Part shown: positions 16,194 to 60,843 of the stretch, piece after piece | Layout: each line of letters opens with the position of its first letter | How positions within the stretch are numbered: position 1 is the first letter of the stretch | Source of the DNA: Terriglobales bacterium | GTDB lineage: Bacteria; Acidobacteriota; Terriglobia; Terriglobales; Acidobacteriaceae | Assembly (NCBI GenBank): GCA_035573675.1 | Contig: DATMAB010000027.1 | Coordinates: forward strand, 310,001-374,000 | DNA: 64,000 nucleotides | Direction: 5' to 3' | The notes under the pieces: model-generated | What the model was told of the DNA's origin: nothing | Seen by the model: only the letters and a program-made list of their open reading frames with translations | The model's database searches: none | Position numbers and translations under genes: made by a program

Positions 16194-17061
16194 GAACAGA
16201 CCCGATTAACCCACGGAGGCCACAGAGGACTGCGGACTGTGATGGAAAGCCAACCTTAGCGGTCCCTGCGGCCAACAGAAGGCGCAAGACTGCGGCCTTC
16301 TGCGAGCCGGAGCAGTAGTCGGGTGTGCCGCCCCTTGCGGGGCTCGACATTCTCTCCTTTCCTCACCCAGCGCTGACGAGTGTGCGTGAGAAGTGGTGTG
16401 CCGCCCCCTGCGGTGTTTGTGTCGTAGCCGTTCTGTCGCCCCTCTGGGGCTCGGGTTGTCCCCACTCCCGCCCACGGCTTACGCCGTGGGCTACAAATCT
16501 TGCGCCGCTTCGCGGCTAAGAATGTCCTGTTCGTTCCACACTTGAAAGCCGCCTCCAGGTACGACACAAATACCTACGGGGCTCGTTCATCTTCCACTTT
16601 CTACCCAGCACTTCCGCGCCGGGCTAACGAATGCCGCCCCCCTCGACTTCGCTCGGGGCAGGCTTCGCGGGCTGGAAGATGAAAGCTTTGGGCCACCTCG
16701 AAACCCCGAAGGCAGTTCTCACGCACACTCTGACGCGCCGGGCTCACCCAAAGGCCGCCCTGCGGGCTGAAGCTGTGCGGCTCCACGAATCCGATCGTGG
16801 TCGCGACACAGAATAGCTCGTGTTGACGCCACGTCCTTGTTCTCCCACCCTATTGCTCCCACAGCGGGAGCAACAAGGGTGGGCAACCGCAGAGAGGGGA
16901 GACTAGAGGCGGTGGAAGCGTGGCCCACGTCAGCGCCGAAGAGCGCGGCGCGAACGTGGGCACCATCGGCGGTGTTCCTCCGAAAATCAGCGGGGCACCA
17001 AGGAACGGAAGGAACCAGTAAGGCCCAGGGCTCGCGCTCGGGGCGGTTACAATGAACGGCC
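16194..17061. other. long repeat-rich intergenic region
   Basis: About 870 bp with no supported gene. It contains GCCGCCCCTTGCGGGGC-type hairpins near 16324 and 16403, multi-hairpin repeat copy C (16471-16516), a CTCCCAC/GTGGGAG inverted pair around 16848-16882, and a CCCACGTCAGCGCC/GGCGCGAACGTGGG hairpin (16921-16964). Confidence 0.7.
16471..16516 (-). repeat. multi-hairpin dispersed repeat, copy C (short form)
   Basis: On the minus strand: hairpin GCCGCGAAGCGGC (16504-16516), spacer GCAAGATTTGTAG, hairpin CCCACGGCGTAAGCCGTGGG (16471-16490). The same hairpin-spacer-hairpin order as copies A, B, D and E, with different arm sequences but matched pairing. Confidence 0.8.
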
Positions 17062-44952: not shown

Positions 44953-45040
44953 CAGTCGCGAAGCGACGGCAAATCGATAGCCCAGCACGTAAGTGCTGGG
45001 TGGCAGAAGCGAGTGGCGCCCGAGTCCCGTAGGGACGGCA
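44953..45040 (+). repeat. multi-hairpin dispersed repeat, copy D (three hairpins)
   Basis: Hairpin 1 GTCGCGAAGCGAC (44955-44967), spacer GGCAAATCGATAG, hairpin 2 CCCAGCACGTAAGTGCTGGG (44981-45000), hairpin 3 GTCCCGTAGGGAC (45024-45036). It ends 17 nt before the ATG at 45058 and is matched by copy E on the other side of that gene. Confidence 0.9.
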
Positions 45041-45632: not shown

Positions 45633-45720
45633 CAGTCGCGAAGCGACGGAAACTCGAAAGCCCAGCACGTTAGTGCTGGGTGAAGATTGGAGAACGGTCC
45701 GAGTCGCGTAGCGACGGCAC
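45633..45720 (+). repeat. multi-hairpin dispersed repeat, copy E (three hairpins)
   Basis: Hairpin 1 GTCGCGAAGCGAC (45635-45647), hairpin 2 CCCAGCACGTTAGTGCTGGG (45661-45680), hairpin 3 GTCGCGTAGCGAC (45703-45715). Hairpin spacings match copy D to within 1 nt. Hairpin 3 changes paired bases on both arms relative to copy D. Confidence 0.9.
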
Positions 45721-51079: not shown

Positions 51080-51580
51080 TCAACGGCGTTGCCGCGGGCG
51101 GCGGGTGAGCAAGACCACCACCTGCGCCATGGCGGTGTTGCGCAGGCCCAGGCCCTCCGGCGTCTTTGCCTTCAGGCTGACAGCCGAGACAGCAACGCCG
51201 AGGAGTCCGGCCACGTGTTTGCGGATGCGCAGGGCATGCGGGCCGACTTTGGGCTCTGCCAGCACCAGGGTAGAATCCACGTTGGCGACGCGGAAGCCTG
51301 TGCGTGCGACCTGCTTCAACGCTTCGCCCAGGAAGATGGCGGAGTCCGCGCCCTTCCATTTCTTCTCCGAGGGCGGAAAGTAGGAGCCGATGTCACCGGC
51401 GGCCACGGCGCCCAGCAGGGCGTCGGTCAGGGCGTGCAGCAGGACGTCGCCGTCGGAATGCCCGGCCAGGCCGCGCGGGTGCGCCAGCCTCACCCCGCCC
51501 AGCTTCAGCGGGATGCCGCGACGAAAAACGTGCGAATCAAAACCGTAGCCGATTCTCATGCTCTTCCGCCGCGGATTCAC
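51080..51580 (-). CDS. ispF: 2-C-methyl-D-erythritol 2,4-cyclodiphosphate synthase
   Basis: MEP-pathway enzyme. MRIGYGFDSHVFRRG, LGGVRLAHPRGLAGHSDGDVLLHALTDALLGA (Zn ligands), GDIGSYFPPSEKKWKGADS and SLKAKTPEGLGL (substrate loop) are conserved. The ATG at 51559 (MRIGYGFD) is the expected start, giving ~159 residues; the ATG at 51580 adds 7. Downstream of ispD, but separated from it by remnant and repeat DNA. Confidence 0.95.
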   Translation of the reverse strand: MNPRRKSMRIGYGFDSHVFRRGIPLKLGGVRLAHPRGLAGHSDGDVLLHALTDALLGAVAAGDIGSYFPPSEKKWKGADSAIFLGEALKQVARTGFRVANVDSTLVLAEPKVGPHALRIRKHVAGLLGVAVSAVSLKAKTPEGLGLRNTAMAQVVVLLTRRPRQRR

Positions 51581-51764
51581 GCGGATGAACGCGGATTCTT
51601 CTTTCTCTCATTTGCAAAGACAAAGCGATTGAACTGAGGCTTCGGTTCAAAATTGAGGAGCAGGCCCACTTCGACTGGAGTCGCACGCAGGTAGTTGTCC
51701 CGCCTATCGCCAAAGTATTGATTCTCCATTTTCTTATCCGCGTGTATCCGCGGAAATCCGCGGT
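51555..51764. repeat. ACGCGGAT-type repeats flanking the GxxExxY remnant
   Basis: GCGGATTCACGCGGATGAAC with ACGCGGATTC on the left and CGCGTGTATCCGCGG plus AAATCCGCGG on the right, in opposite orientation around the remnant. Similar text (CACGGATTACACGGG) lies at 52564. Confidence 0.75.
51601..51696 (-). pseudogene. remnant of a GxxExxY-family protein (C-terminal end)
   Basis: On the minus strand the stretch NYLRATPVEVGLLLNFEPKP, followed by QFNRFVFANERK, matches the C-terminal end of GxxExxY proteins (PD-(D/E)XK-like superfamily). The upstream catalytic part is missing, replaced by ATCCGCGGAAATCCGCGG repeat text. The remnant is bounded on both sides by ACGCGGAT-type repeats. Confidence 0.65.
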
Positions 51765-52490
51765 TCAAGCGTTTTTCTTTTCCTGGGCCAGATAAAACTC
51801 AGCCAGCTCCAAATCCGCCGGGCTGGTGATCTTGAGGTTGCGGGCGGAGCCCATGACCACCGCCACCTCATGTCCCGAGCGTTCGACCAGGGAGGCCTCG
51901 TCGGTGCCGGTGAAGCCGTCCGCCTGGGCTTCATCGAAGGCTTTCTTCACTACATCGTAGCGGAAGCCCTGCGGGGTCTGAGCCATGACCACGCGCTCAC
52001 GCGGGATGGTGGTGATGACGATAGCACCCTCGGCGGTGCGGTCGACTTGCTTGATGGTGTCTACAGCAGGGACGCCCGCGATGGCTGCGCCATGCCTGGC
52101 GGCGGCAGCGATCACGTTGCCGATGGTCTCCCTGTCCACGAAGGGGCGCACGGCATCATGCACCAGCACGATATCGTCCGGGGCCGGCTGCGAGCGGCGC
52201 TCAAGCTCCGCCAGGGCGTTGGCCACCGACTGCTGGCGGTTTTCGCCACCCTCCACCAGGCGGACCGGGCGCGCCGGGCGCTCCTGGTCCAGGCGCGGGG
52301 CGAAGCGCTCGCTGTCCAGTGAACGCAGCGCCACATAGATCTCGGCAACCTCGGCCAGGGCGGTGAACTTGCGCAGGGTATGTATGAGGATGGGGACGCC
52401 GGCCATCTCGGTGAACTGCTTGGGCGCACCCGCCACGGGCGCCATGCGCGTGCCCAGCCCAGCGGCGGGGATGATGACGAAGACCCTCAT
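51765..52490 (-). CDS. ispD: 2-C-methyl-D-erythritol 4-phosphate cytidylyltransferase
   Basis: MEP-pathway nucleotidyltransferase. IIPAAGLGTRMAPVAGAPKQF is the CTP-binding loop; VAEIYVAL, VEGGENRQQSVANAL, ILVHDAVRPFV-like IVLVHDAVRPFVDRE, TIPRERVVMAQTPQGFRYDVV and FTGTDEASLVERSGHEVAVVMGSARNLKIT are all present. 241 residues is usual. An ispD-ispF order is common; here ~170 nt of repeat/remnant separates them. Confidence 0.96.
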   Translation of the reverse strand: MRVFVIIPAAGLGTRMAPVAGAPKQFTEMAGVPILIHTLRKFTALAEVAEIYVALRSLDSERFAPRLDQERPARPVRLVEGGENRQQSVANALAELERRSQPAPDDIVLVHDAVRPFVDRETIGNVIAAAARHGAAIAGVPAVDTIKQVDRTAEGAIVITTIPRERVVMAQTPQGFRYDVVKKAFDEAQADGFTGTDEASLVERSGHEVAVVMGSARNLKITSPADLELAEFYLAQEKKNA

Positions 52491-52516
52491 CGGGGGCGAA
52501 AAGTATAGAACAGGTG

Positions 52517-52544
52517 TCAGTGGTCAGTGGCCAGTTGCCAGTTG
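52517..52544. repeat. heptamer array upstream of ispD
   Basis: Four units TCAGTGG, TCAGTGG, CCAGTTG, CCAGTTG. Confidence 0.92.
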
Positions 52545-52640
52545 AAAAAAGCCAAGAGGCAGCCACGGATTACACGGGTGAGCACGAATGACTTCTATGG
52601 CTGAGTGCGGAACGCGGAATGCGCCATGCGCGCGGCCTTA

Positions 52641-52675
52641 ACTGACCACTGATCCCTGGCCACTGGCCACTGCCG
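52641..52675. repeat. heptamer array abutting the PIN-TRAM stop codon
   Basis: Five units ACTGACC, ACTGATC, CCTGGCC, ACTGGCC, ACTGCCG end exactly at the base before the TAA (minus strand, 52676-52678) of the PIN-TRAM gene. Confidence 0.92.
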
Positions 52676-53770
52676 TTACGGCTCGACCGGCGGCCGCTCG
52701 ACCACGATGGGCTGAGGGCGGCGGGCTTCCTGGGCCGGCGAACGCGGCTCGGACGGTCGGATCTCGGCGGGGCGGATGGCGGCCGTCGAATCGGTGAGCT
52801 TGCCGAAGATCATCTTGCCGGCCGTGGTCTGGAGGACCGAGGTCACGGAAATCTCCACGTTCTTGCCGATCATGCGGCGGGCATTATCCACCACGACCAT
52901 GGTGCCGTCGTCGAGGTACGCCACGCCCTGGTTGTACTCCTTGCCCTCCTTGAGGATAAAGACCTTCATGGCCTCGCCCGGCAGCACGATGGGCTTCAGG
53001 GAATTGGCCAGTTCGTTGATGTTGAGCACGGGCACGCCCTGGAGCTGGGCGACCTTGTTGAGGTTGAAGTCGTTGGTGACGATCTTGGCCTCGTAAACTT
53101 TGGCCAGTTCGATGAGCTTCAGGTCCACCTCGCGGACCGTAGGAAAGTCGTCGTCGACGATCTGCACGTCGAGCGAGGCGATCTTCTGGATGCGTTGCAG
53201 GATGTCCAGGCCCCGGCGGCCACGGTTGCGCTTGAGCGAATCGGCCGAATCCGCCACCAACTGCAGCTCACGCAGCACAAAACGCGGAATCACGATGACG
53301 CCGTCGAGGAAGCCGGTTTCGGCGATATCTGCGATACGGCCGTCGATGATCACGCTGGTGTCAAGAATCTTGTAGCTCTTCTTGCCCTGCTTCTCGCCCC
53401 CGAACACGCCGCCCAGGGCGTTCAGATTCAGCAGGTCGCCCTTGTTGGCCCCAAGGATGAGGCCGACGTAGGCCATAAGCAGGACGACCATGAGCTGCAG
53501 GAAGCTCTGGGTGGAACCGGGAGCGATGCTGTTGCGGATGACCAGGCTGAACAGGTAGGCACCGAGGATGCCCAGGATGCTGCCGATGGCCGCCCCGATG
53601 AGCCGGCGCAGGCTGATGACGCGCAGGCGCACCTCGAACAGGATGACCCCCACACCGAGGAGGAACCCGAGGACGGCGGCATAGGCTGCGGGCAGCCCGA
53701 AGGGCTTCAGGGCGACGGCCGCCACCGCCACCACCACGATAAAAATCAGGCGGATGAGGACTAAATCCAT
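52676..53770 (-). CDS. membrane PIN-TRAM domain protein (YacL-like)
   Basis: The 364-residue protein has four N-terminal TM helices (MDLVLIRLIFIVVVAVAAVA, AAYAAVLGFLLGVGVILF, LIGAAIGSILGILGAYLF, LMVVLLMAYVGLILGA). A PIN nuclease domain (YKILDTSVIIDGRIADI, IVTNDFNLNKVAQLQGVPVLNI; acidic residues conserved) and a TRAM domain (VAYLDDGTMVVVDNARRMIGK) follow. Probably an RNase or RNA-binding protein. The Pro-rich C-terminus ends against a heptamer array. In many bacteria it lies upstream of ispD, as here. Confidence 0.93.
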   Translation of the reverse strand: MDLVLIRLIFIVVVAVAAVALKPFGLPAAYAAVLGFLLGVGVILFEVRLRVISLRRLIGAAIGSILGILGAYLFSLVIRNSIAPGSTQSFLQLMVVLLMAYVGLILGANKGDLLNLNALGGVFGGEKQGKKSYKILDTSVIIDGRIADIAETGFLDGVIVIPRFVLRELQLVADSADSLKRNRGRRGLDILQRIQKIASLDVQIVDDDFPTVREVDLKLIELAKVYEAKIVTNDFNLNKVAQLQGVPVLNINELANSLKPIVLPGEAMKVFILKEGKEYNQGVAYLDDGTMVVVDNARRMIGKNVEISVTSVLQTTAGKMIFGKLTDSTAAIRPAEIRPSEPRSPAQEARRPQPIVVERPPVEP

Positions 53771-54044
53771 GTCGGGACCTCCTTCCTAAGGCCGCCGGCA
53801 CTGCTAATGATGCGGCTCCTACCACTTCGGTCCCGTGCAACTTTCCACGCTCGGAGCCTATGAAAGATGACGTCGCTCCGACCCGGGACGACAATCCAAA
53901 CCCCTGCTCCCGGGAATACCTAGCGCCAACCTATAACAACCTCGCTGCCAAGAGCTATGGCACGGAAGTGCCAATTCCGCGCAGTTATCACAAGAATAAA
54001 CATAGCACAGCATATTGTTATTGACCAAGTTACTAAAAGGAAGC

Positions 54045-54232
54045 ATCGTAGGGTGCGGCAGCGAACGGGCTGCCCCAAGGTCCACAGCGGCGCAGGCGAA
54101 CCAGCCTGCGCCGAAAAAACAGACTCAGCCCACCCGAAAGGGAGATGAGCGGGCTTGCCTCCACCGGACGAGAGGCGGGGGCTGGAAAAACCGGCGCAAA
54201 AATTCTCGGGGGAGAACGCGCCGGTTTTTTCC
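54045..54232 (+). ncRNA. candidate structured RNA or leader ending in a terminator
   Basis: Successive stems: GGCAGC/GCTGCC near 54056-54074, a perfect 9-bp GGCGCAGGC/GCCTGCGCC (54089-54097 with 54104-54112, loop GAACCA), GCCC/GGGC near 54128-54156, GCCTC/GAGGC near 54157-54176, then the terminator. There is no plus-strand gene upstream for the terminator to serve, so it most likely ends a free-standing small RNA or an attenuated leader of the peptidase gene. It does not match riboswitch classes whose consensus I can recall. Confidence 0.55.
54186..54232 (+). terminator. strong terminator hairpin with orphan position
   Basis: CCGGCGC (54191-54197) pairs with GCGCCGG (54218-54224), with a nested TTCTC/GAGAA stem capped by GGGG, followed by TTTTTT. 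A-run on the left makes it possibly bidirectional. Confidence 0.88.
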
Positions 54233-54340
54233 TTTCTAGGCGACTCCTTTTCAAGCCCTGCGTCTTCACTTTACGGCGCGATTGCCCGCCCGGTACAATC
54301 CGCCGTTCCGGCGTCCGGGCCGGGACTGAGGGAGGCAGAA

Positions 54341-56497
54341 GTGCCCAGGCAAGGCATCGAAGCCACGCTGCTCGCAGTGCTGATGACCGCCACGCTGCCG
54401 GCGTGGGCCAAGTACATCCCCGACCCCATTGTGAAGTACCAGATCAGCGCGCGGCTCGACCCCCGCACCAAGATGGTGCACGGCAGCGAGACCATCGAGT
54501 GGCGCAACGCTTCCGGCGACACCATCACCGACTTGCAGTTCCATCTGTATCTGAACGCCTTCAAGAACACCCAGACCACATTCATGCGGGAAGGAGGCGG
54601 CACGCAGCGGCGGGTGAAGTTCCGCGCGCGTGAGGACGCCTGGGGCTACATGCAGGTGCGCCGCATCCTCGTGGACGGCGAGGACCTGACCATCGCGATG
54701 GAGTACATCCAGCCGGACGACGGCAACAAACAGGACCAGACGGTGATGCGGCTGCCGCTTACGCATGCCATCGGGCCGGGCGGGCGGGCCAAGATCGAGA
54801 TCGAGTGGGTGTCAAAGCTGCCGCGGGTGTTCGCGCGCACGGGATTCCAGGACGACTTCTTTTTCGTGGCCCAGTGGTATCCCAAGCCGGGAGTCTATGA
54901 AGCGGCCGGGGAGCGGCATCGCGGCCGGGGCGGGTGGAACTGCCATCAGTTCCACGCCCAAAGCGAGTTTTACGCGGATTTCGGCACCTTCGACGTGGAC
55001 CTGACGGTGCCGCGCGACTTTGCCGTGGCCGCCACCGGAATGCGCCGCAGCCGCACCGAGAATCCCGATGGCACCGCCACGTACAACTACTACCAGGAGG
55101 ACGTGCACGATTTCGCCTGGGTGGCGCAGCCGCTGTCCCAGGTGGTGATCGACGAACGCACGTTCGTGGCCAACGAGCGCGTTACGGAAGATGAGTATCG
55201 TGAGTGGGCGGAGAAGACCGGGGTCTCGCCCGACGAGCTGCGGCTGGACGACGTGCGAATCATCCTGTTCATGCAGAAGGAGCACGCGGCCCAGGCGACC
55301 CGGCACTACTGGGCGGTAGCCCACGCCATCAAGTGGTACGGGCTCTGGTACGGGAAGTACCCCTACGAGACGATCACGGTGGTCGATCCGCCGTGGAGCG
55401 GGTCCGGGGCCGGGGGCATGGAGTATCCGACCTTGATTACCGCCGGAACGGTGTTCTGGCCGGGCAAGGCCGACCTCCACGAAGGGCCTGAGTCGGTCAC
55501 CGTGCATGAGTTCGGCCACCAGTACTGGTACGGGCTGGTGGCCAACAACGAGTTCGAGGAAGCCTGGCTCGACGAGGGCTTCAACACCTACTCGACCGGC
55601 AAGGTGCTGGAGCGCACCTTCGGACCCGACTATTCGTACGAGTACATTCTCGGAGTGCCGGTGCCGGCGCGGCCGTGGGTGAAGATCTGGGCGCCCCGCT
55701 ATCCGTGGAAGGGCGTGAAGCAGGTGGGCATCGGGCAGTACTGGGAGTGGGTGCCGCTGTTCCAGCAATACGGCCGGACGCGCGCCTTTTGGGAGTACGC
55801 AGCCACGGATCAGGTGCAGCGCAACGCCTGGGAGTTCTTCAACCGCGAGAGCTACTCGGCACAGTCCTATGCCAAGACCGAGCTGACCCTGCGCACGCTG
55901 GAGGAAATGCTGGGAGACCGCTGGCCGCGGGTGATGCGCACCTACTTCCAGCGCTGGCGCTTCCGGCATCCCGATGCGCAGGACTTCATGGCCGTAGTGC
56001 GGGAAGTCTCCGGGCGCGACATGGGCTGGTTCTTCGACCAGTCGCTGAACTGGTCCAGCACCCTGGAATACTCGGTGACCTTTCATACGGGCAAGCGCAC
56101 GCCCAAGGAGGGCTACTTCGACGACAACGGCGAGCCGAAACTGGTCACGGCCTCACCCGCGCCGGCGCCGGGAACGCCGGACAACGTGGAGTCGGAAGTG
56201 ATCGTGCGCCGCCTGGGCAACATGCGGTTTCCGGTGGTGCTGCACGTGAGATTCGCCGACGGAAAGGAAGTGCGGGAGCGATGGGACGGGAACTATCGCT
56301 GGGCGAAATTCCAGTACCGCAACCGGCCGGCGATCGTCTCGGCGGAGATCGATCGCGATTTTACCTGGAAGCTGGAAGTCCCGCGGACCGACAACAGCGC
56401 GCTGGCCGAGCCCGTGCGCCTGGCGGCCGACAAGTGGTATCTGCGCTGGGTGGTGTGGATCCAGAACGTCCTGATGACTTTTTCTTTTTTTGCGTGA
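54341..56497 (+). CDS. secreted M1-family (gluzincin) metallopeptidase 1
   Basis: The 718-residue product has a signal peptide (GIEATLLAVLMTATLPAWA) and an N-terminal beta-domain (KYQISARLDPRTKMVHGSETIEW). The catalytic domain has GAGGMEYPTL (exopeptidase motif variant) and VTVHEFGHQYWYGLVANNEFEEAWLDEGF (HExxH-18x-E Zn site). A C-terminal tail ends in VVWIQNVLMTFSFFA, hydrophobic and perhaps membrane-associated. The GTG at 54341 has a GGGAGGCAG ribosome-binding site; an open frame upstream crosses the terminator and is not used. The next gene follows after 3 nt. Confidence 0.9.
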   Translation: MPRQGIEATLLAVLMTATLPAWAKYIPDPIVKYQISARLDPRTKMVHGSETIEWRNASGDTITDLQFHLYLNAFKNTQTTFMREGGGTQRRVKFRAREDAWGYMQVRRILVDGEDLTIAMEYIQPDDGNKQDQTVMRLPLTHAIGPGGRAKIEIEWVSKLPRVFARTGFQDDFFFVAQWYPKPGVYEAAGERHRGRGGWNCHQFHAQSEFYADFGTFDVDLTVPRDFAVAATGMRRSRTENPDGTATYNYYQEDVHDFAWVAQPLSQVVIDERTFVANERVTEDEYREWAEKTGVSPDELRLDDVRIILFMQKEHAAQATRHYWAVAHAIKWYGLWYGKYPYETITVVDPPWSGSGAGGMEYPTLITAGTVFWPGKADLHEGPESVTVHEFGHQYWYGLVANNEFEEAWLDEGFNTYSTGKVLERTFGPDYSYEYILGVPVPARPWVKIWAPRYPWKGVKQVGIGQYWEWVPLFQQYGRTRAFWEYAATDQVQRNAWEFFNRESYSAQSYAKTELTLRTLEEMLGDRWPRVMRTYFQRWRFRHPDAQDFMAVVREVSGRDMGWFFDQSLNWSSTLEYSVTFHTGKRTPKEGYFDDNGEPKLVTASPAPAPGTPDNVESEVIVRRLGNMRFPVVLHVRFADGKEVRERWDGNYRWAKFQYRNRPAIVSAEIDRDFTWKLEVPRTDNSALAEPVRLAADKWYLRWVVWIQNVLMTFSFFA

Positions 56498-58299: not shown

Positions 58300-60843
58300 C
58301 TACTTCACGTTCTCCTGAGTGCAGAGCACGTCGTTGTAATAGTTAAGGAGAGCGCGTTTGGGCTTGTCTTTCATGCCGCCGAGGGGGACCTGGGCGTCGC
58401 GGGTCGAGTTGCCGATCATCGGCATGGTGCCGAGGCGTGTTATCCGTCCGCTGGAAAGCTCCAGGTACACCGGCACCAGCATCTGGAAATTCGCATCCAC
58501 ATTGGACTGGGTGATCTTGAAGCTCAGCACCGGATTTCCATCTGCACCCTGAGTCAGGCTGTGCGAGAACTGATAGTGGGGCAGCGCGGTGCCATAGACG
58601 TACTGGTTGAAGAACCAGTCCATGCGGCGATTCTGCGTGATGTCGATCTCCGGCGGCATGTGCTTCTCCACCACGGCTTTGAAATCCTCGGTGGTGGCCG
58701 GCTGGTTGGCGTAGGTGCGCACAAAGTCCTGCATCATGGCCTGGAAGGCCTGGTCGCCCTTCTGCGGTGTCCACATCAGCATGCGCAGCATATGCAGGAT
58801 ATAGGCGCCCTTGGGATACACCAGGTCGCGATAGACGTTCGTTCCCATCTTCCGCTTGATCGCGCGGATCCCCAGCGTGACGGGCGCCGCGTCGATGCTG
58901 CGATAGCCCTCGGCATTACGATCGGTCAACTGCTTGCGCAGGTCATTCCAGAACTGGATGAACTCCTTATCATTCTTCTGAATGAGCTGCAGGAAGAGTG
59001 AAGCGGACATGTGGGCGAAGCCCTCGCTCATCCACTGGTCGCGGTAGCCTCCCCAGCCGACGGTGTGGCCCCACCACTGATGAGCCACCTCATGCGCGGT
59101 GACCACCTTGAAATACGTGACCAGCTCAGGAGGCAGGGTTCCAAAAAGGGAGTGCCGCGTGGTGGAGTCAAGAAAGGAGCACAAGGGAAGGTAGACCAGC
59201 GCCGGCCACGCCTGTCCGAAGCTGCAAGCCGTCTGCTGGGTGATGGCCACATGCTTGTACGGAGCGGCGCCGAAGTAGTGGTTGAACAACTGGACGGAAA
59301 GCTGCCCCTCGGCCAGCGCTTTGTCCATCAGGGTAATCGTGCTCATCGTGCCCGTGGGCGGAATGTATTGCTCGATGCGGTCCGTTCCTTGCGCCGGAAG
59401 GGCGCCAATATTCTGGATGGAGCGCACCCAATCGGGCTGGATCTGGTTGGCATAGGTCTCGACGGAATAGGCCTCCTTGTCGAGCTTGGCTTGCTTGCGC
59501 TTAAACAATCCAAAGTTAAAGCCTGCGACAGCTTGTGGAACCTCACTGCGCCACTCGGAGATGCTCTGGTTGCCCTCCACGTATTCGCGCACCATGGTCC
59601 CGGTACCTGCGGTCTGCATCCCCTTGGGAACGCGGAAAGTCAGTTCATAGGTCGCGTAATCGCCAAACGTGCTATTGGGGTACCAGTTGTGCCGGGCCAC
59701 AGGGAAGTAGTTTCCGCCTCCTTCATTGGTCACAGCATCTTTGCCCTCGTAGATGGTGCGAAGGGTGAAGCGTTCGCCCGCCGCCAAGGGCTTGGGCAGA
59801 ACGACGAAAAACTGGGGGTCTTGGTGGTGGGCCTCCTGGATGAACACCAGGAGCTGACCATCCTGCCCGGTAACGCTTTCCACCCGCAGCTTGCGAAACA
59901 AATCAAAGGGGACGACGCGAAGCCCGTTCACCTGCGAGACGATGGTTGTGGTCGCGTCGCCGCGCAGCCGTCCGCTTTTCTCCAGCAAGGCATCCAGCTT
60001 CTGGGACTCGATGTCAAAGGGCGCATTCTTCTGTTTGCCGCTGGCCTTGCCGGCGGCGTATTCGGGGGAGAAGTGGAAGGCCGCCCAGACGCCCCAGTTG
60101 TCGTCGTCCCAGGTGATGAGGGCAACTTCCTCGGGTGCGGTGCCGAATATCGGGGGGCCGGTTTCCGGGCTCCCCATGTCCGGCACACCGAACGGATCGA
60201 TGAAGTAAATCATCTTGCCGCTGTACTTCTTGCCGCGGATGAAGGCCACGAACAACTTGCCGGGCTCGGGGCTGAGGACGTCCTGCAGGATGCGCCCGTG
60301 GAGGTTGTAGGCCAGGCGGCCGCGCAGTGCGTCCTGGATCTCCTGCAGTGCTGAAGCCGCCCCGCCTCCGCCCCCGCCCGGCGAGGCGCCGGCGGCCTTC
60401 TTGATCTCGCTGTCGGTTCCGTCGGTGAAACGCAGGACGAGCTGACTGAAGTCCTCGCTGAACGGCTGCCCCTTGGTCAGCAGGGCCAGGCTGTTGCGCT
60501 CCATTTCGATCGGAGGGGTGAGTGAGAAGCTGCCCTCGCCCAGGAACACGGCGCCGGTGACCTTGCCGTTCACCGCCGCCAGGAAGTGGAAGGTTCCCAC
60601 CTTGAAGGTGAAGGTGCCGGCGTCGCGTTTCAGCACCAGGTTGCTGACCGACGCCACTTCACCACTGAGGGCGATGTTGCGCAGCGCCTGGTAGGTGGGA
60701 TCCGTGTTCGGCGTTTGCGGTGCCGGGGTCGAGGGTGGCGCGGGCGCGGCGGGACGCGGCGTGACCTCCTGCGCAAAGGCGGCGCACCCGATGCCCAGAC
60801 AAGCAAGGACCACAACGGCGCTGAAAGGCCTGATGGGACGCAT
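58300..60843 (-). CDS. secreted M1-family (gluzincin) metallopeptidase 2
   Basis: The 847-residue product starts with a signal peptide (FSAVVVLACLGIGCAAFAQ) and a Pro-rich linker, then a long N-terminal beta region. The catalytic segment VTAHEVAHQWWGHTVGWGGYRDQWMSEGFAHMSASLF has the HExxH-18x-E Zn site. I do not see a typical GAMEN motif; the corresponding region reads FGQAWPALVYLPLCSFLD, so it may not be a true aminopeptidase. A poly-Gly stretch (ASPGGGGGGAASA) interrupts the N-terminal domain. It is convergent with the small secreted gene across the terminator. Confidence 0.88.
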   Translation of the reverse strand: MRPIRPFSAVVVLACLGIGCAAFAQEVTPRPAAPAPPSTPAPQTPNTDPTYQALRNIALSGEVASVSNLVLKRDAGTFTFKVGTFHFLAAVNGKVTGAVFLGEGSFSLTPPIEMERNSLALLTKGQPFSEDFSQLVLRFTDGTDSEIKKAAGASPGGGGGGAASALQEIQDALRGRLAYNLHGRILQDVLSPEPGKLFVAFIRGKKYSGKMIYFIDPFGVPDMGSPETGPPIFGTAPEEVALITWDDDNWGVWAAFHFSPEYAAGKASGKQKNAPFDIESQKLDALLEKSGRLRGDATTTIVSQVNGLRVVPFDLFRKLRVESVTGQDGQLLVFIQEAHHQDPQFFVVLPKPLAAGERFTLRTIYEGKDAVTNEGGGNYFPVARHNWYPNSTFGDYATYELTFRVPKGMQTAGTGTMVREYVEGNQSISEWRSEVPQAVAGFNFGLFKRKQAKLDKEAYSVETYANQIQPDWVRSIQNIGALPAQGTDRIEQYIPPTGTMSTITLMDKALAEGQLSVQLFNHYFGAAPYKHVAITQQTACSFGQAWPALVYLPLCSFLDSTTRHSLFGTLPPELVTYFKVVTAHEVAHQWWGHTVGWGGYRDQWMSEGFAHMSASLFLQLIQKNDKEFIQFWNDLRKQLTDRNAEGYRSIDAAPVTLGIRAIKRKMGTNVYRDLVYPKGAYILHMLRMLMWTPQKGDQAFQAMMQDFVRTYANQPATTEDFKAVVEKHMPPEIDITQNRRMDWFFNQYVYGTALPHYQFSHSLTQGADGNPVLSFKITQSNVDANFQMLVPVYLELSSGRITRLGTMPMIGNSTRDAQVPLGGMKDKPKRALLNYYNDVLCTQENVK

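What the first reader, a model, noticed from the sequence alone, without database searches (positions are those of the whole stretch)
54045..54232. Orphan structured RNA with its own terminator upstream of an M1 peptidase gene
Four hairpins, one a perfect 9-bp stem, precede a strong terminator in a divergent gap. No plus-strand gene lies upstream, so the terminator must end a small RNA or a regulated leader. The AT-rich stretch at 53985-54040 could hold its promoter. No known riboswitch consensus I recall fits.
Basis: partly seen in the sequence, partly recalled or inferred. Interest (0 to 1): 0.6.

Follow-up and report, generated by a model that had tools for sequence, protein, structure and literature searches.

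The report
Undescribed small RNA gene in Acidobacteria
Between two ordinary genes of a soil-type acidobacterium lies a separate gene for a short structured RNA, with its own switch and stop signal, that is shared by a few dozen related bacteria, matches no catalogued RNA family and probably regulates other genes.

Summary
Window 54045-54232 folds into four hairpins and a compound terminator (z -4.0) and matches no Rfam family. Comparison makes it a real, free-standing small-RNA gene. A terminator model finds it at E <= 1.5e-10 in 31 of 150 family genomes. A model of its 3' half finds it in 39 of 398 family genomes, and in 5 of 297 across the phylum, all of the same family. Upstream lies a conserved promoter block, GTTATC-N6-GTAAACA-N18-TTGACC-N17-CATNTT, recovered in 9 of 11 named relatives not used to build its model. 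The RNA keeps a divergent PIN-TRAM gene beside it in 28 of 31 genomes, but the M1 peptidase is the next gene in only 5 of 31. In at least five genomes the next gene is convergent, which excludes a leader there. It is not 6S, not a CsrA sponge (no CsrA in 35 genomes) and not a small protein. Hfq is strongly matched in 33 of 35 genomes. Best reading: an activator-controlled, trans-acting, probably Hfq-type sRNA. Expression and targets are untested.

The parts
53984..54002 (+). Conserved upstream element GTTATC-N6-ATAAACA (consensus GTTATC-N6-GTAAACA), centred near -64 of the predicted start: probable class-I activator site
   Evidence: Aligned in 31 relatives; alignment A3; recovered by model R2
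54021..54026 (+). -35 element TTGACC
   Evidence: TTG in 31 of 31 rows, the scan being anchored on the pattern
54044..54049 (+). -10 element CATCGT (consensus CATNTT), 17-base spacer
   Evidence: A at position 2 and T at position 6 in 31 of 31, C at position 1 in 97%
54056..54232 (+). Small RNA, about 177 nt, predicted from about 7 nt after the -10 element to the end of the terminator
   Evidence: Promoter position and terminator; the start itself is inferred
54057..54074 (+). 5' hairpin 1 (GGCAGC/GCTGCC)
   Evidence: Fold; a hairpin right after the -10 is seen in many but not all relatives
54088..54113 (+). Hairpin 2, perfect 10-bp stem, not conserved in all relatives
   Evidence: Fold; absent from short members such as G148 and G168
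54127..54155 (+). Hairpin 3, 'b-module': short GGCC-type stem closing a loop with the conserved AGAUGAGC; candidate seed
   Evidence: Exact GATGAGCGG in 20 of 31 relatives; stem counted; mean unpaired probability of AGAUGAG 0.62 against 0.37 for whole RNAs
54157..54182 (+). Hairpin 4, variable in sequence
   Evidence: Fold of the window RNA and individual folds of relatives
54187..54230 (+). Intrinsic terminator, two-storey: outer CCGGCGC/GCGCCGG and A/U pairs, inner UCUCGGGGGAGA (54204-54215), U6 tail
52676..53770 (-). Divergent neighbour: PIN-TRAM membrane protein; adjacent in 28 of 31 genomes with the RNA
   Evidence: Pfam PIN and TRAM; synteny
54270..54299 (+). Promoter-like site (TTTACG-18-TACAAT) between the terminator and the M1 gene: candidate promoter of M1 itself
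   Evidence: 1 found; 0.4 expected by chance
54341..56497 (+). M1 family peptidase, incidental downstream neighbour
   Evidence: Peptidase_M1; next gene in only 5 of 31 genomes

Best explanation
A stand-alone gene for a regulatory small RNA of about 177 nt. Shown by comparison: a conserved promoter block and an intrinsic terminator bracket a structured RNA that travels as one unit through part of one acidobacterial family, independently of the downstream gene. Inferred: an activator bound at GTTATC-N6-GTAAACA (about -64, class-I position) recruits sigma-70 RNA polymerase to the weak TTGACC/CATNTT core. The transcript ends at the two-storey terminator, whose U tail loads Hfq. It then pairs in trans with mRNAs, most likely through the exposed AGAUGAGC of hairpin 3. 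The invariant UCUCGGGGGAGA cap of the terminator is a second functional contact, either a protein site or a G-rich pairing loop.
For: Fold z -4.04. Model R1 at E <= 1.5e-10 in 31 of 150 family genomes. Model R3 in 39 of 398. Promoter block scored 15-24 of 24 in 31 RNA-bearing genomes against at most 14 in 23 PIN-TRAM loci without an adjacent RNA. R2 finds the block in 17 of 19 named relatives, including 9 of 11 not used to build it. In 9 of 9 genomes the next-best R2 match has E >= 0.137 (all 9 were training genomes). Neighbours change while the RNA stays. Structure kept in 95.8% of cells, with 4 pairs changed on both sides; slid controls reach 42-53% of cells. Hfq strongly matched in 33 of 35 genomes. 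AGAUGAG more often unpaired than average.
Against: No expression data. The 5' half is poorly conserved. Fold z of the body without the terminator averages only -2.1, against -1.2 for upstream control DNA. Hairpin 3 is missing in about a third of members. Two RNA-bearing genomes (G002, G062) have only weak Hfq matches. No target was identified, and the neighbouring PIN-TRAM leader is not a conserved one. The unpaired probability of AGAUGAG ranges from 0.15 to 0.96.
Confidence: 0.62

Rival explanations
1. A protein-titrating or structural small RNA. The conserved terminator cap and hairpin 3 bind a protein (not CsrA), for instance the neighbouring PIN-TRAM protein, and the RNA acts by sequestration rather than by base pairing.
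For: The most strongly conserved sequence, UCUCGGGGGAGA, is a hairpin cap inside the terminator, where sequence is normally free to drift. A divergent gene for a PIN (nuclease-type) and TRAM (RNA-binding-type) protein is adjacent in 28 of 31 genomes.
Against: CsrA is absent from 35 of 35 genomes. The RNA stays in three genomes where PIN-TRAM is elsewhere. PIN-TRAM is present in many genomes without the RNA.
Confidence: 0.2
2. A conditional terminator or riboswitch leader of the downstream gene: ancestrally a zinc-type (quinone oxidoreductase-like) dehydrogenase, here the M1 peptidase.
For: That dehydrogenase gene lies downstream on the same strand in 15 of 31 genomes, in 12 of them within about 240 nt. 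In the window, hairpin 2 could pair with the terminator arm over 6 nt.
Against: Convergent next gene in at least five genomes (M1-type in three; ThiF/rhodanese and RelA/SpoT). M1 is the next gene in only 5 of 31. A complement of 6 nt or more to the terminator arm occurs in 9 of 31 members only. M1 has a promoter-like site of its own after the terminator.
Confidence: 0.07
3. A divergent form of a known housekeeping RNA (6S, SRP, tmRNA or RNase P).
For: Similar length; one copy per genome.
Against: A gathering-level 6S RNA lies elsewhere in the same genome (G000:C7:926-1116). No Rfam hit. No tmRNA in the window. Patchy presence even among near relatives.
Confidence: 0.02
4. A small-protein gene starting at the AUG in hairpin 3.
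For: An ATG just after a GGGAG sequence at 54145 opens a 162-aa frame.
Against: Among the 20 relatives with the motif, the frame between this AUG and the invariant terminator cap takes all three values.
Confidence: 0.02

Closest known systems
Hfq-associated trans-acting small RNAs (recalled general class, as in enterobacteria)
   Same: Own regulated promoter in an intergenic gap, intrinsic terminator with a U tail, modular hairpins, conserved short unpaired stretch; Hfq encoded in the genome
   Different: No sequence or Rfam relationship to any described family; pairing and Hfq binding not shown; a strongly conserved cap inside the terminator, which I do not recall as typical
Acido-1 (RF01686) and Acido-Lenti-1 (RF01687)
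   Same: Listed as probable non-coding RNAs of Acidobacteria in Weinberg et al. 2010 (PMC2864571, passages seen)
   Different: Neither model matches this locus even at E 10; Acido-Lenti-1 matches three other places in the window
6S RNA (RF00013)
   Same: Length of about 180 nt
   Different: No match here; the genome has its own 6S elsewhere
CsrB/RsmY-type sponges
   Same: Hairpin-rich sRNA under a possible activator
   Different: CsrA not found in 35 of 35 genomes

Membership tests
Trans-acting (Hfq-type) small RNA | Independent transcription unit with its own promoter and terminator | tested here: met
   Conserved promoter block and terminator; unit kept when neighbours change. By comparison only; no transcript data
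Trans-acting (Hfq-type) small RNA | Hfq encoded in the genome | tested here: met
   Strong PF17209 match in G000 and in 33 of 35 genomes; only weak matches in G002 and G062
Trans-acting (Hfq-type) small RNA | Binds Hfq and pairs with distant mRNAs | not testable with these tools
   Needs pull-down or target mapping; only accessibility of a conserved stretch was computed
Any Rfam 15 family | Gathering-score match | tested here: not met
6S RNA (RF00013) | Covariance-model match at this locus | tested here: not met
   6S found at G000:C7:926-1116 instead; no hit at the locus
CsrA-titrating RNA | CsrA present in the genome | tested here: not met
   0 of 35 genomes; the controls E. coli, B. subtilis and T. 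maritima were found
Riboswitch or attenuator leader | Constant same-strand downstream gene | tested here: not met
   M1 next in 5 of 31, dehydrogenase downstream in 15 of 31, convergent gene in at least 5
Riboswitch or attenuator leader | Conserved alternative pairing that would disrupt the terminator | tested here: not met
   Complement of 6 nt or more to the terminator arm in 9 of 31

The most novel reading that the evidence does not exclude
A dedicated activator-RNA module in which the terminator itself is the working part. The invariant UCUCGGGGGAGA cap, grafted into an intrinsic terminator, is a specific protein- or RNA-docking site, perhaps for the divergently encoded PIN-TRAM protein. 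The promoter block would then serve this one gene per genome, which would be a small-RNA mechanism distinct from Hfq- and CsrA-type regulation.
Probability: 0.12. Interest if true: 0.65.

Novelty: new member of a known kind. Interest (0 to 1): 0.42.

Why it matters
My searches of the held library found no description of this RNA, and it is absent from Rfam. If confirmed, it would be a lineage-specific regulatory RNA family with a complete, readable control region in Acidobacteriota, where regulation by small RNAs is, as far as I recall, little studied. The single-copy promoter block offers a handle for finding its activator. G032, a single-contig 5.65-Mb genome, looks by size (recalled) like the cultured Koribacter strain Ellin345; if so the gene could be tested directly.

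Tried and rejected
Riboswitch or leader for the M1 peptidase: rejected on synteny. 6S: rejected. CsrA sponge: rejected. Small protein: rejected on mixed frames. Conserved antiterminator: not supported. PIN-TRAM leader as a conserved target of AGAUGAGC: 7-nt complements in 3 of 31 only, about what chance gives by my rough estimate. A wider family of sRNAs sharing the terminator cap: the pattern CTCGGGGGAG flanked by GCG/CGC occurs in 88 of 150 family genomes, many of the listed matches lacking a terminator-like repeat. One other terminator of this shape (G099:C2:224494-224537) has no promoter block (score 14). Exact-pattern scan of 84,980 genomes: 44 stretches; only the 19 acidobacterial ones that score 40 bits or more with R3 are taken as real, the other 25 as chance.

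Literature: searches (listings and abstract starts seen) and passages of PMC2864571 gave no description of this RNA. The library is open-access only, so absence from print is not shown.

Rows dropped: from the and call-24/25 sets, G147, G106 and G116 were left out of the 31 (weak match, no promoter block), and G143's second copy (contig edge). The R2 training set of 17 used only rows with the commonest spacing. G000 and G001 are near-identical relatives of one another, so counts by genome overstate independence; by genus the R3 family search gives 21 of 79.

Full report
Observation. The RNA folds at -92.9 kcal/mol, z -4.04, with 0 of 200 shuffles as good. The long stem is 10 bp rather than 9. 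The terminator is a two-storey hairpin, which the simple scan missed. No Rfam family reaches its gathering score at the locus, and a permissive scan gives only chance-level hits (best E 0.54, on the other strand).

Conservation. A DNA search with 53990-54240 found the whole stretch in the sister genome (91% identity) and short pieces, mostly the terminator, in ten further genomes (12 of 61 genomes with a match, the own genome included). The terminator aligns as CCGGCGC, a short variable linker, UCUCGGGGGAGA, a linker, GCGCCGG and U residues, with the inner cap identical in all ten rows. A covariance model of the terminator (R1) gives 46 of 150 family genomes at E <= 0.01. In 31 of them the match is at E <= 1.5e-10, and these 31 are the set analysed below. 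A second model, R3, of the 3' half gives 39 of 398 family genomes at E <= 0.001, 21 of 79 genera, and 5 of 297 phylum-wide, all five in the same family. In the class-wide R1 search (27 of 299 genomes at E <= 0.01) the 13 out-of-family matches are no better than E 3.4e-4. The models were trained on family members, so remote relatives could be missed. In public records the exact terminator pattern occurs in 44 stretches. Nineteen of these score 40 bits or more with R3, all acidobacterial, including records titled Candidatus Korobacter and Candidatus Angelobacter.

Promoter. In the window it is at 53984-54049. In the 31 genomes the best site scores 15-24 of 24 (spacing variants of one base allowed). 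In 23 PIN-TRAM loci with no RNA beside them, the best score in up to 900 nt is at most 14 (fixed spacing). A sequence-only model (R2) built from 17 rows finds the block just upstream of the RNA in 17 of the 19 named relatives. In 9 genomes, all of them training genomes, the RNA promoter is the best match and the next has E >= 0.137, so the block appears to serve this one gene. The upstream pair of boxes lies near -64, a class-I activator position; that reading is inference from general knowledge. The C at the first position of the -10 (97%) is unusual and unexplained.

Independence from neighbours. PIN-TRAM is divergent and adjacent in 28 of 31 genomes. In the other three (genus g71) the RNA lies elsewhere, in front of a zinc-type dehydrogenase gene. 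That dehydrogenase (Pfam ADH_N and ADH_zinc_N for the G004 protein) is downstream on the same strand in 15 of 31, in 12 of them within about 240 nt. The M1 peptidase of the window is the immediate neighbour in only 5 of 31. The next gene is convergent in at least five genomes: an M1-type gene in G074, G129 and G157, a ThiF/rhodanese protein in G148 and a RelA/SpoT protein in G062. In genomes without the RNA, PIN-TRAM and the dehydrogenase face each other directly across 216-373 nt in eight cases and farther apart in two, so the RNA gene is present or absent as a unit in an otherwise conserved gap. In the window, a promoter-like site (54270-54299) between the terminator and GTG 54341 would let the M1 gene be transcribed on its own.

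Structure and motifs. In 19 aligned members the named helices form standard pairs in 95.8% of cells, with four pairs changed on both sides; sliding the partners gives 42-53%. Most terminator pairs hardly vary, so covariation support is modest, and the structure was derived from these same sequences. The region between promoter and terminator folds with mean z -2.1 against -1.2 for upstream control DNA (31 and 30 sequences): structured, not strikingly so. The 5' half varies in length and sequence. Twenty of 31 members carry the exact GATGAGCGG of hairpin 3, and AGAUGAG is unpaired with mean probability 0.62 (range 0.15-0.96) against 0.37 for whole RNAs. The terminator loop GGGG is essentially always open (0.999 in the 30 RNAs that hold the exact motif). 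The frame between the AUG of hairpin 3 and the terminator cap is mixed, so this is not a coding sequence.

What it is not. The same genome has a 6S RNA above the gathering score at another place. CsrA is absent from 35 of 35 genomes. Complementarity of 6 nt or more between the terminator arm and the body occurs in 9 of 31 only, so no conserved antiterminator is visible.

How it most likely works. A regulated promoter makes an RNA of about 177 nt that ends at an intrinsic terminator; this much rests on comparison. From there on it is inference: Hfq, strongly matched in 33 of 35 genomes, binds the U tail, and AGAUGAGC pairs with distant mRNAs. The extreme conservation of the terminator cap is not explained by termination alone and suggests a second contact. 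Two RNA-bearing genomes with only weak Hfq matches (G002, G062) argue against strict Hfq dependence.

Novelty. It is a new small-RNA family of a known kind: not in Rfam, and not found by four searches of the held literature or in the passages of PMC2864571 that I saw. Expression, start site, activator and targets remain untested.

Noticed in passing
window 16471-16517 (+), 44954-45000 (-), 45634-45680 (-): Three gathering-level matches to Acido-Lenti-1 RNA (RF01687), two of them about 680 nt apart on the same strand.
   Followed up: no
window 53958-53973: Perfect inverted repeat TGGCAC-GGAA-GTGCCA just upstream of the promoter block; the sister genome has the same arms with another spacer. Perhaps a repressor site or part of the PIN-TRAM promoter region.
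   Followed up: no
G099:C2:224494-224537 (-), locus L226: A second terminator of the same two-storey design with an ACUCGGGGGAGU cap and a long U tail, but without the promoter block.
   Followed up: partly
31 relatives, -10 element (window 54044): The first base of the -10 element is C in 97% of members, giving CATNTT instead of TATAAT; the sigma factor is unclear.
   Followed up: no
window 54341-56497 and 58300-60843: Two separate M1-peptidase-like genes lie close together (the second named by its HExxH-type sequence, from recall, no Pfam call); the second is the convergent neighbour of the RNA in three other genomes.
   Followed up: partly
window 51080-53770 (-): IspF, IspD and PIN-TRAM genes run in one direction, an order kept in many relatives; IspF was named from recall and has no Pfam call here.
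   Followed up: no
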